Part shown: positions 20,116 to 35,982 of the stretch, one piece after another
Layout of the letters: each line of letters starts with the position of its first letter
Numbering within the stretch: position 1 is the first letter of the stretch
Assembly: GCF_023065955.2 (NCBI RefSeq)
Contig: NW_026622874.1
Location: forward strand, 12,382,001-12,446,000
Direction of reading: 5' to 3'
From: Ursus arctos
Lineage: Eukaryota > Chordata > Mammalia > Carnivora > Ursidae
Length of the DNA: 64,000 bases
Made by a program: the position numbers and the translations under genes
Notes under the pieces: generated by a model
Databases searched by the model: none
What the model was told of the DNA's origin: nothing
The model's input: the letters and a program-made list of their open reading frames with translations, nothing else

Positions 20116-20215
20116 ATGGCTAACAGAGTTGCTCCTCTTCGAGTTGCTTGGATGAAGCACTTGAGCCTACTTGCTTTGAGAAAAACAGTGACATGGGAGA
20201 CTATGGAAGTTCCAG
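20116..20215 (+). pseudogene. FMO-family pseudogene, exon-2-like relic
   Basis: Begins ATGGCTAACAGAGTTG, the form of an FMO first coding exon, and after a net deletion of about 31 bases reads EPTCFEKNSDMGDYGSS. This aligns with EPTCFEKSDDIGGLWKFS of the FMO3 exon at 50298-50435. The deletion removes the FAD-binding GxGxxG segment and shifts the frame, so it cannot code. The end at TTCCAG corresponds to the family's exon 2 end, but the donor has been lost (ATAGGA follows). It lies on the same strand as FMO3, 30 kb upstream, and is the first piece of a collinear FMO relic (see 23862, 25820 and 35740). A chance match is possible because the segment is short, but the order and strand of the other pieces support it. 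Confidence 0.65.
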
Positions 20216-20924
20216 ATAGGAGGCTTCTCCTACATTGGTTGGTAATATGCTGTTATTGCTAAGGTTGTTTATCTCAGGAGATCCAGACAATTTGGCAAGT
20301 ACACCACTGGGAGGAGGAACCGGAAGGCTCTCCCTCTGCAGAGTCACTTACCAGTTCAACAAACACATCAAGATGCATGCCAGGCTCTTTGCCTGTGAAC
20401 CCTCCACCCATATAATTTCTTTGCCATATAAAACTGAGTTTATAGGGGAGGAAAAATCATGGGACAATAGCATTTTGTAGGGCAGATAAATCAGATCATG
20501 CTTCAGAGAACATTTATTTTTTAAAAGGCCTCTATTCTTGCATACCAGGCTTCAGAGATTTTATTTATGGTTTGAAGTAAAAAACCACTTTCACATTTAT
20601 TATCTCATGAGCTTTTTTGTTATAAAGGACATTAACAAAGCATATTGTAAACTGATCCCCCGAATGCCTTCGACATGTTAAATTTCAGTTTCTTACTACA
20701 TCATGAAATTGGTCTTAAGTCAGTTCCCTTTATATTGTGTGCTTTGCTTTCCTTGTATCTAGCGATCTTCATCCCCTCACCCACCTCAATCCCACAGCTA
20801 CAGCCTGGACCCTGTCATCACCAGGAGTTACTCCACCACTCATATCTTAAATTCAAGCAATCCTGCTTCAGGACCCCCACCTCTTATATTTCCAGAACCC
20901 TGAGACTTCTATATGAGTTTCTTA
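20216..20924. other. Intron-like gap of the FMO relic
   Basis: No clear exon. The segment 20285-20405 (GRLSLCRVTYQFNKHIKMHA in one frame) has a faint resemblance to FMO exon 3 but is not convincing. Confidence 0.3.
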
Positions 20925-21035
20925 GACTGGGTGTCTTCAACAACAGAAATGTATTTCCTTACAAGTTGTGGAGGCTGGGAAGTCCCAGATGAAGATGAGG
21001 CAGCTTTGATTTCTTGCGAGGCCTCTCTCTGCTGG
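20925..21035 (-). repeat. MLT1-type LTR, 3' part (split)
   Basis: 'cttcaacaacagaaatgtatttccttacaag', 'gtggaggctgggaagtcccagatgaag' and 'cgaggcctctctctgctggct' are an MLT1-type LTR in reverse. The rest lies at 21460-21690. Confidence 0.75.
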
Positions 21036-21459
21036 CTTAGTCAGGGTTCTCAAGAGAAACAGAACCAATAGGGTATTTGGAGGTAATAGAACAGAAGATT
21101 TGTTATAGGAGTTGGCTCCTGTAATTATGGAGGCCAACAAGCCCACTATCTGCTCTCTGCGAGCTGGAGAACCAGGACTAAAGCCAGAAGTTCCAATGTT
21201 CGAGAACAGGAGTTGGATGTCCCAGCTGAAAAAGAGAGAGAGCAGATTTACCCTTCCTCCACTTTTTGTTCTATTCAGGCCCTCAATGGATTGGATGATG
21301 GCCTGCCTCCTAGGTGAGGGGAATCTTTACTCACTTTACTGATTCAGTACTAACCAGAAACTCTCACAGACACACCCAGAAGTCATGTTTTACCTGCTGT
21401 CTGGGCAGCACTAATCCCAGGCAAGTTGAGACATAAAGTTAACTTTCACAGCTGCTTTT
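21036..21459 (-). mobile_element. Interspersed repeat nested inside MLT1
   Basis: Starts 'agtcagggttctcaagagaaacagaaccaatagg' and ends 'caagttgagacataaagttaactttcac', the ends of a common mammalian interspersed repeat whose name I cannot give with confidence. It interrupts the MLT1 LTR. Confidence 0.65.
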
Positions 21460-21690
21460 GCTCTGCCTTCACATGGTCCTTCTTCCGTGTGTCTGTGCCA
21501 TAGCTCCTCTTCTTCTAATGACACCAGTCGTACTGGATTAGAGCCCATCCCATGACCTCATTTAACTGTAATTACTTCCTTAAAGACCCTATCTCCAAAT
21601 GCAGTCACATTCTGAGCTACTGAGGGTAGGATTTGAAGAAAGGAATTTGAGGGGGACACAATTCCTCCCATAACGTTCATTCCTACCACA
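21460..21690 (-). repeat. MLT1-type LTR, 5' part
   Basis: 'gccttcacatggtccttcttccgtgtg', 'ctcttcttctaatgacaccagtcgtactggattagagcccatcc', 'cctatctccaaatgcagtcacattctgag' and 'gagggggacacaattc' continue the LTR split at 21035. Confidence 0.8.
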
Positions 21691-33910: not shown

Positions 33911-33928
33911 ATCACGTCGGGGTCACCA
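33911..33928 (-). other. ERV primer-binding site, tRNA-Trp type
   Basis: The + strand at 33911-33928 is identical over 18 bases to the 3' end of mammalian tRNA-Trp including CCA (as I recall the tRNA), so the minus-strand element has a tRNA-Trp primer-binding site. It sits two bases inside the 5' LTR end. Confidence 0.8.
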
Positions 33929-33930
33929 GT

Positions 33931-34367
33931 TGTGGACTCTGACCAGCAGAACCCACGGCGGCAGAAATAATTACTTGAGACTACCGATCAGCCAAGACAG
34001 GTGAGAGGGAGCCGGAGGATAGGCTCCCCAAGCTGCTCCTAGACTCTCCACGTGATTAATGCAAAGACTTTGGGTAACAAAGTGACACAGGTTATGCAGA
34101 GCAGAGGCTTAAGTGCAGAGCAGGGGGTTACCAGGTTCTTGAAGCAGACAAGGCAATTAATCCTATGCAATTCAAAGCGTACGCTTTAACTATTTCTGGA
34201 TGTGAGTTTTCTAGAGGAAGGGCAAAAGCGGGCAAGAATCCCACAAATTTGGTGAAGCCTGTACTAGATAAGCGAAGCACGTCCTGCTGTTTTCCACAAG
34301 ACAGAAAGCCGTTTTCTGCTGGGCTATGCAGCCCTATAACTTATTAACCTATAATTGTATTCCCACA
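33931..34367 (-). repeat. ERV 5' LTR
   Basis: On the minus strand it runs from TGTGGGAATAC (ending at 34367) to ...GTCCACA (33931), 437 bp, with TG...CA ends. The first 260 bp match the 3' LTR. Confidence 0.85.
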
Positions 34368-35739
34368 GACTTTTATCCCACCAGAAAACATTAACTTATG
34401 TGCTTCAACAGGGTCCTTTTTGTTCTCTGATGAAAAGATCAAAGAACGTTTTAATCTCTTCTCACACCTTCGGAAGTCAAGCCAGCAAAACGAGTTCACA
34501 AACATATGAGGTTGTATATAAATAAATGCATGCTAACCTTCAAACCCACTTGATTGGTCTGCAGACCGTCATCACTACAGACTGATCTTACAATAATCAT
34601 CATTTAACATTTTCATCGTTACATGGAACATTTTCATAAACTTTAAACTTTCTAAAACGACTTCAAAGTTGTTTTGTTTTTACATGGTAACTTCTGTCTA
34701 AGTGGCTTCTGTATTACTCCTGGGCCAGTAAGTATTGGGTCTCTCCTTGAGGGTATTCTCGGTTTGGGAGGGATAGTGAAACGGAAGAGTACTCCTTTTA
34801 ACGCTTACCGATGGCATCCTAACTTTTAAAGCTAGACCACTGTTGGCAGTCATTGAGGAGTACTACTGGGAAAGCAGCGACAAAGAAGACTGCTTTTATA
34901 TAAGCTGCGTGAGGGGGTGTATCCTTAATGCTCGGAACATTACCTGGCACACAGTAGGTATTCATTGACTAGGTGAATGACTAGGAAGTGCGTAGGAATG
35001 TAGTTGAAGATACAGATAAAGGGCACCACGTGCCTTCTTCTTGGTTATAAGTTCCCACCAGCTCCATGAACCTTATCTATTTGCTATTTTGCCTATTTAA
35101 TACCATACAACTCAGCACACCAGACAGCGTGTGACTCTGTGTGTGTGTAATAGTGAAATTACCTTCTTATGAGTCTGTTTCCTCCGCTAGACTCTGTACT
35201 CTGTGTCTTATAAATCTTTGTATCTTCAGCAACTAGCTCAGTGCCTGACACATCATAAGAATTATGAAATATTTGTTGAACTGGTCAACTACAATGTGAA
35301 TAAATCTATTCATATCCTTCCCATTTTTTTTCTCTAAAAATAAAAGAAGTGGGTTGATCTGTAAGTGGTTCTCAGTGAACCACAATGTGGTACTTCCACA
35401 TAGGAACATCTTGAGATGTACAGGGACGGTTTTCTGTTTTCCTAATGCAGGCGAGGTATCAGTGGTTCTTATTAACCAGGTACCAGGCCAGCTAAATACA
35501 TGCTAATCGCTAGGCTAGTCCCACACATTAAAGTCCCTGTTCAACCTGTCATAGTGAGACCATTCAGAACTTTATTCCCTAAAGTCCTTTCTAGTTCTAA
35601 AACTCTATGATTCTAAGTGGAAAATATATTTTAAAAATTATTGTTTCAAAATGCGGACATGAATATCAAGCTAACATCACCCAGTAAAGCTCTTGCTTTG
35701 CTTCCTATTTGCCTTTAGCTATGTTTCTGGCTGACACGT
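34368..35739. other. Intron of the FMO relic, no gene seen
   Basis: Contains L2/MIR-like ends near 34900-34985 ('gctcggaacattacctggcacacagtaggtattcattgac') and 35180-35285 ('agctcagtgcctgacacatca'). Confidence 0.5.
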
Positions 35740-35982
35740 TGCTCGCAGGTCCAAAATGTGGACTATATGAACGAAAAGGCCAGTTTTTCTAGTGTGAACC
35801 CCAAACTACTATCCCTGTTTCTCAAGGATCCCAAACTGACCTGGGAAATCTTTTCTGGCCCTTGTACACCAACGCAGTTCCAGCTGATAGGATCTGGGAA
35901 ATTGAATAGGGCCAAAAGCCTCTTTAATGCCCCCACGCCAGAAAATCTATCAAAGCCCTCAAGACAAGGAGTCTCCCTCTAA
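35740..35982 (+). pseudogene. FMO-family pseudogene, last-exon relic
   Basis: An open frame from 35758 reads MDYMNEKASFSSVNPKLLSL, then FLKDPKLTWEIFSGPCTPTQ, then FQLIGSGKLNRAKSLFNAPT, ending at a TAA (35980-35982). This is the FMO last-exon course: (V)DYMDE...G.KPN...L.L.DPKLA...FFGPC.PYQFRL.GPG.W.GAR.AI.TQ. The preceding bases (SQVQN) extend the match a little. The conserved GPGKW is GSGKL, and the C-terminal membrane anchor is lost by the early stop. It is the 3' piece of the relic whose exon-7 part is at 25820-26196; an ERV of 3.7 kb lies in the intron between them. Surprisingly open for its age, but isolated from any working upstream exons. Confidence 0.9.

What the first reader, a model, noticed from the sequence alone, without database searches (positions are those of the whole stretch)
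20116..35982. A decayed extra FMO gene lies between MROH9 and FMO3
Four pieces of FMO-family coding sequence occur on the + strand in the right order: exon-2-like (20116), exon-5-like (23862), exon-7-like (25820) and last-exon-like (35740). Two of them stop at the family's exon boundary with a GT donor, so the copy is an unprocessed tandem duplicate, not a retrocopy. The human cluster as I know it has FMO6P between FMO3 and FMO2 and a separate pseudogene cluster elsewhere, but no named FMO pseudogene upstream of FMO3. It would mean the cluster once began one gene earlier.
Basis: partly seen in the sequence, partly recalled or inferred. Interest (0 to 1): 0.88.

Follow-up and report, generated by a model that had tools for sequence, protein, structure and literature searches.

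The report
Dead ancient FMO gene beside FMO3
Upstream of FMO3, in what is most likely a bear genome, lie the broken remains of another flavin-containing monooxygenase (detoxification) gene, and because they match reconstructed ancestral FMOs better than neighbouring FMO3 they are likely an old, lost family member rather than a recent copy of FMO3.

Summary
All four score far above shuffled and real-DNA controls. Exons 4-6 were not found: 831 bp separate exons 3 and 7, against 6.3-12 kb in FMO2, 3, 4 and 6. Introns remain, so this is an unprocessed pseudogene, broken by frameshifts, indels and lost splice donors. New here: it is probably not a copy of FMO3. Over 294 columns it is closest to the reconstructed tetrapod ancestor tAncFMO1-5 (54%), against 44% for FMO3; at FMO3/6-diagnostic columns it has the ancestral residue 16 times and the FMO3/6 residue once. 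No stops in 252 codons and still-conserved codon positions 1 and 2 suggest long function, then death perhaps tens of millions of years ago (rough). Its exact branch is unresolved. An exon-3-like fossil at 10362-10472 hints at another lost copy. Other mammals could not be checked. In passing: FMO3 itself carries an in-frame TGA in exon 6.

The parts
20116..20215 (+). pseudogene exon 2 remnant: ATG and MANRVA, a deletion that removes the FAD-binding GxGxxG part, then SSSSCLDEALEPTCFEKNSDMG and, after a frameshift, LWKFQ; donor AT instead of GT
   Evidence: nhmmer 20132-20213 E 1e-12; profile 29.2 bits, E 2.1e-8; sequence
   Evidence: nhmmer 24855-25011 E 2.3e-16; Pfam 24.5 bits against cut-off 22; profile 28.6 bits
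25842..26196 (+). pseudogene exon 7 remnant: AG acceptor and GT donor kept; frameshifts near 25888 and 26121, 3-nt insertion, 9-nt deletion; FATGY motif reads FATGQ
   Evidence: nhmmer 25871-26195 E 1.7e-47; genome-wide Pfam E 4.7e-17; profile 71.3 bits
35719..35982 (+). pseudogene last exon (exon 9) remnant: AG acceptor kept, ends at an early TAA before the C-terminal tail
   Evidence: nhmmer 35757-35974 E 1.3e-21; genome-wide Pfam E 5.1e-11; profile 68.1 bits
25011..25841 (+). 831-bp interval where exons 4, 5 and 6 should lie; none detected, a deletion is inferred
   Evidence: distances; no exon 4-6 profile hit above shuffles
10362..10472 (+). weak second exon-3-like fossil, possible remnant of another lost FMO copy
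   Evidence: profile 17.3 bits, E 8.6e-5, 0 of 120 shuffles reach it; pairwise DNA alignment not significant
50310..50434 (+). FMO3 exon 2, first coding exon of the next gene, for orientation
   Evidence: nhmmer E 2.8e-37; exon 2-4 peptide closest to AncFMO3-6 among solved structures, 340.7 bits

Best explanation
Four ordered exon remnants upstream of FMO3 form what is most simply one unprocessed FMO pseudogene, likely the dead remnant of a deep FMO lineage that split off before FMO3 and FMO6 arose and was probably functional for most of its history. Shown: homology, exon order, kept introns and some splice sites, no detectable exons 4-6, broken donors, frameshifts. Inferred: the gene arose by DNA-level duplication of an early FMO at the head of the cluster, stayed under purifying selection, lost function through frameshift, splice-site or deletion changes (order unknown), and then decayed roughly neutrally. 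It can hardly make a working enzyme now: the FAD GxGxxG part of exon 2 and the exon with the FMO motif are gone (that the NADPH site also lies in the missing exons is recalled). Redundancy with the remaining FMOs is the likely reason that its loss was tolerated.
For: Homology with controls. Structure: exon 3 to exon 7 distance 831 bp against 6255-12053 bp in four neighbours; splice sites. Not FMO3-derived: 159 of 294 columns identical to tAncFMO1-5 (54.1%), 144 of 294 to own FMO5 (49.0%), 119 of 271 to own FMO3 (43.9%), 125 of 294 to own FMO2 (42.5%); 34 columns diagnostic for own FMO3 and FMO6: 1 derived, 16 ancestral, 17 neither; a tree of 53 rows puts it outside the main-cluster clade, and AU rejects FMO3+6 (p 0.0001) and the second-cluster clade (p 0.0005). 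Past function: 0 stops in 252 codons read piecewise; identity to own FMO5 65.7/71.8/44.8% at codon positions 1/2/3, where the other own genes reach 66-74/77-85/39-44%. Age: extra divergence about 0.14 substitutions per site (12 estimates of p, 0.06-0.19); the chance of no stop is 0.08-0.10 at 0.13 and 0.02-0.03 at 0.2.
Against: Its end branch is very long (1.71 changes per column) and its place among FMO5, reptile FMO5-like and the base of FMO1-4 is unsupported (30/0). In a reduced data set (294 columns, 49 rows) the AU test did not reject FMO3+6 (p 0.169, lnL 13.0 lower). Ancestral reconstructions are drawn to consensus residues, so high identity to them is partly expected. The FMO3/6-diagnostic columns were defined from only two genes of this genome. 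The peptide is a piecewise reading of a broken gene with frames chosen by eye, which also lowers the chance of counting stops. The dating assumes typical paralogue divergence at death and a recalled neutral rate.
Confidence: 0.75

Rival explanations
1. A tandem copy of FMO3 (or of the FMO3/6 ancestor) that decayed fast.
For: Position next to FMO3; exon 2 alone scores best with FMO3 among the rows (49.7 bits; some 543-residue FMO5-like proteins score higher, up to 52.0); AU p 0.169 in the reduced set.
Against: Only 1 of 34 FMO3/6-diagnostic columns carries the FMO3/6 residue, 16 the ancestral one; identity to FMO3 lower than to FMO5 and the ancestors; AU p 0.0001 on the full alignment.
Confidence: 0.07
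2. A narrower version of the best explanation: a member of the main-cluster clade that branched below FMO1-4 and 6, the cluster's own first-branching gene.
For: Position at the cluster's end; AU does not reject it (p 0.319).
Against: 0 of 6 FMO1-4/6-diagnostic columns derived (2 ancestral, 4 neither).
Confidence: 0.3
3. A stray of the FMO5-like families that include the second-cluster genes (mouse FMO12 type) and the 543-residue FMO5-like genes.
For: Good scores with 543-residue proteins (exon-wise identity 41-83% in exons 2, 3 and 7); the union of both families is not rejected (p 0.134).
Against: FMO12-type clade rejected (p 0.0005), 543-residue clade weakly rejected (p 0.035; a group named after seeing the hits); this genome's second cluster lies 44 Mb away.
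Confidence: 0.15
4. Processed retrocopy or chance matches.
For: None found.
Against: Gaps of 4.6 kb (exon 2-3) and 9.5 kb (exon 7-9) with AG/GT at several boundaries; the four pieces score 29-71 bits where 120 shuffles reach at most 11.1.
Confidence: 0.01

Closest known systems
Human FMO6P and FMO7P-FMO11P pseudogenes
   Same: Pseudogenes of the FMO family in or near the FMO clusters (PMC11726875 and PMC11621177, passages read).
   Different: FMO6P is placed in the main cluster, FMO7P-11P in a separate one; the passages name none upstream of FMO3. The human interval was not tested here.
tAncFMO1-5 / tAncFMO5 (reconstructed tetrapod ancestors, PMC9950137)
   Same: Highest identity of the 57 rows compared, 54.1% and 53.4%.
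   Different: Those are inferred ancestors that were made as active enzymes; this is a dead gene with its own long branch.
FMO5-like second-cluster genes (Ursus arctos FMO5-like, mouse FMO12)
   Same: Same family and exon scheme; one gene without stops in the exons read and one pseudogene lie at C114:56.42-56.46 Mb in this genome.
   Different: 44 Mb away; the pseudogene is rejected as a member of the FMO12-type clade.

Membership tests
FMO family (PF00743) pseudogene | Significant similarity to FMO exons above controls | tested here: met
FMO family (PF00743) pseudogene | Disabled: frameshifts, lost exons, lost splice sites | tested here: met
   Frames; donors AT and GG; exons 4-6 not found
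Unprocessed (duplicated) pseudogene | Exons separated by introns in family order, one strand | tested here: met
   Exons 2, 3, 7, 9 in order on + strand
Unprocessed (duplicated) pseudogene | One unit rather than pieces of several copies | tested here: inconclusive
   Order and spacing fit one unit, but a second exon-3-like piece lies upstream and proviral pieces lie between exons 7 and 9
FMO3/FMO6 lineage | Shares residues diagnostic for FMO3/6 | tested here: not met
   1 derived, 16 ancestral, 17 neither of 34 columns
FMO1-4/6 main-cluster clade | Groups with these genes in a tree | tested here: inconclusive
   AU p 0.319
Mammalian FMO5 | Shares FMO5-diagnostic residues | tested here: not met
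   0 derived, 4 ancestral, 3 neither of 7 columns
Mammalian FMO5 | Groups with mammalian FMO5 in a tree | tested here: inconclusive
   AU p 0.584
FMO12-type second-cluster clade | Groups with these genes in a tree | tested here: not met
   AU p 0.0005
Shared cluster pseudogene of carnivores or mammals | Ortholog at the same place in other species | not testable with these tools

The most novel reading that the evidence does not exclude
Mammals once carried a further, deep FMO lineage at the head of the FMO1-4 cluster, outside FMO1-6 and outside the second cluster. It worked for most of its history and died in the bear lineage; the exon-3 fossil at 10.4 kb marks a second vanished copy, so the cluster lost at least two genes at this end.
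Probability: 0.35. Interest if true: 0.6.

Novelty: new member of a known kind. Interest (0 to 1): 0.4.

Why it matters
A published account describes five FMO paralogues conserved in virtually all tetrapods, with FMO6 a mammalian copy of FMO3 (PMC9950137, passages read). A dead gene that predates the FMO3/6 split, at the edge of the cluster, would show that the FMO set of this lineage was once larger and was trimmed by loss. It also gives an easy test: other mammals may still hold a living ortholog. A possible premature stop in FMO3 of the same assembly adds to the picture of FMO gene turnover.

Tried and rejected
Exon 5 at 23862: chance level and out of order. Exon 8 in the pseudogene: a scan for 70-76-nt frames between AG and GT gave 2 frames that do not resemble exon 8, but that scan recovered exon 8 in only 2 of 5 neighbours, so it is weak; the exon 8 profile found nothing above shuffles. 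Pairwise DNA comparison of the 10.4 kb piece with exon 3 of each paralogue is not significant (3 of 579 other windows score as high for FMO5, 4 of 579 for FMO6, 17 of 579 for FMO3, more for FMO2, FMO4 and the second-cluster gene), so it stays a hint. Flanking homology between 9.8-11.0 kb and the pseudogene: no match better than E 0.2. One search mapped codons with mismatched rows and was replaced. Pfam on the ORF 1412-1771 (possible MROH end) gave nothing above cut-off. The exon 7 protein search returned 2 hits among 7 candidates: the window's own 78-residue piece, and a soft-shelled turtle fragment at 58%; its length limit keeps out full-length FMOs. 'FMO3' with 'MROH9' listed 3 papers, unrelated by title (listing only).
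Full report
Setting. The window is C114:12382001-12446000 of an unnamed 2.42-Gb genome. It is most likely a bear: the gene in its second FMO cluster matches Ursus arctos FMO5-like at 96% over a crude exon join and sits on a practically zero-length branch with it in the tree. A whole-genome six-frame PF00743 scan gave 51 matches. They show a main cluster on C114, read here as FMO3, FMO6, FMO2, FMO1 and FMO4 (names by order, recalled; the exon 2-4 peptide of the first gene is closest to AncFMO3-6), FMO5 on C26, and a second cluster at C114:56.42-56.46 Mb. 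MROH-family exons lie upstream of the window on the same strand.

What is there. Exon models from this genome's own FMO genes find, left of FMO3 and on the + strand, exon 2 (E 1e-12), exon 3 (2.3e-16), exon 7 (1.7e-47) and exon 9 (1.3e-21). Protein profiles from at most 55 FMO rows per exon score 29.2 (exon 2), 28.6 (exon 3), 71.3 (exon 7) and 68.1 bits (exon 9); the best of 120 dinucleotide shuffles were 10.8, 8.2, 7.1 and 11.1. In 239 kb of other DNA from this genome, apart from the known FMO genes, and in 250 kb of reversed sequence, exon 3 scored at most 5.9 and 5.7.

Anatomy. Exon 2 keeps the ATG but has lost the stretch with the FAD GxGxxG motif; its donor reads AT. Exon 3 keeps its acceptor, has two frameshifts and one codon fewer, and its donor reads GG. 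Exon 7 keeps acceptor and GT donor, with two frameshifts, a 3-nt insertion and a 9-nt deletion. The last exon keeps its acceptor and stops early. Exons 3 and 7 are 831 bp apart, against 10725, 6255, 8751 and 12053 bp in FMO3, FMO6, FMO2 and FMO4, and no exon 4-6 is detectable, so a deletion is inferred. That removes the exon 5 peptide, which holds the FMO motif FxGxxxHxxx(Y/F)(K/R) (motif from PMC10682829, passages read; peptides). Between exons 7 and 9 lie proviral pieces on the - strand: 3 of 5 open frames tested matched (an integrase C-terminal and a Rec-type model above cut-off, an integrase core model below it; 32452-33342). They may explain part of that intron's length and were only described.

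Relationship. I compared a piecewise reading of the pseudogene with 57 other rows: 49 of the 232 proteins fetched, chosen by hand to span the groups, 7 own genes and the second-cluster pseudogene. Over 294 columns the best are tAncFMO1-5 (159 of 294, 54.1%), tAncFMO5 (53.4%) and tAncFMO1-4 (53.1%), then alligator FMO5 (51.7%); own FMO5 49.0%, FMO3 43.9% of 271, FMO2 42.5%, FMO4 40.1% of 267. At 34 columns diagnostic for own FMO3 and FMO6 it has the FMO3/6 residue once, the ancestral one 16 times, neither 17 times; for mammalian FMO5 0, 4 and 3; for FMO1-4/6 0, 2 and 4; for the 543-residue FMO5-like group 1, 1 and 5. In a 53-row tree (five rows dropped: three ancestors, a turtle fragment, the second-cluster pseudogene) it stands on a long branch near FMO5 and reptile FMO5-like genes without support. 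AU tests: with FMO3+6 p 0.0001; FMO12-type second-cluster clade 0.0005; 543-residue FMO5-like clade 0.035; both families with platypus 0.134; main cluster 0.319; mammalian FMO5 0.584; reptile FMO5-like needed no test (support 30/0). Against this, in a reduced set (49 rows, pseudogene columns only) FMO3+6 was not rejected (p 0.169) although its likelihood was 13.0 lower, nor was FMO2+3+6 (p 0.345). I conclude that it is old and probably not a copy of FMO3, and that its exact branch is open.

History. Read piecewise, 252 codons hold no stop. Identity to own FMO5 is 65.7, 71.8 and 44.8% at codon positions 1, 2 and 3, where the other own genes (the second-cluster pseudogene aside) reach 66-74, 77-85 and 39-44%. 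This is the pattern of a gene that was long under purifying selection. The extra loss at positions 1 and 2 corresponds to about 0.14 substitutions per site, and the lack of stops makes more than 0.2 unlikely (P 0.02-0.03). With a recalled neutral rate near 2e-9 per site and year this is some tens of millions of years, possibly up to about 100; it is a rough figure with untested assumptions.

A second fossil. At 10362-10472 an exon-3-like stretch scores 17.3 bits (E 8.6e-5), reached by 0 of 120 shuffles, but pairwise DNA comparison is not significant and no further exon accompanies it. It hints at another, older lost copy.

Known or new. Two papers list human FMO1-5 and pseudogenes FMO6P-11P, FMO6P in the main cluster and the rest in another (PMC11726875, PMC11621177; passages read). 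[quoted passage not shown] No listing of eight searches of the open library pointed to an FMO pseudogene upstream of FMO3; I read passages of four papers only. The founding paper on the human and mouse clusters (Hernandez 2004) is known to me only through its citations. The thing is a pseudogene of a known family: a new member of a known kind, with an interesting placement.

Noticed in passing
C114:12449413-12449415, downstream of the window (locus L009): FMO3, whose first coding exons lie in the window, has an in-frame TGA in exon 6 where AncFMO3-6 has W, and its exon 7 motif reads FATVY instead of FATGY; own FMO1, 2, 4, 5, 6 and the second-cluster gene show no stop in the exons read. FMO3 may be inactive in this animal, or this may be an assembly error. 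Two paper searches listed no report (listings only).
   Followed up: partly
window 10362-10472: Exon-3-like fossil on the + strand, possible remnant of a second lost FMO copy.
   Followed up: partly
window 32452-33342, - strand: Proviral pieces (integrase-type and Rec-type Pfam matches) inside the intron between pseudogene exons 7 and 9; described only.
   Followed up: no
C114:56419262-56457940: Second FMO cluster: one gene with no stop inside the exons read (matches Ursus arctos FMO5-like) and one pseudogene with a stop in exon 7 and in exon 9.
   Followed up: partly
proteins P0218-P0220 and P0224-P0232: A well-supported clade (12 rows, 100/99) of 535-543-residue FMO5-like proteins in aardvark, tarsier, rabbit, horseshoe bat, Tasmanian devil and others, beside the FMO12-type clade: mammals hold more FMO lineages than the usual five or six.
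   Followed up: partly
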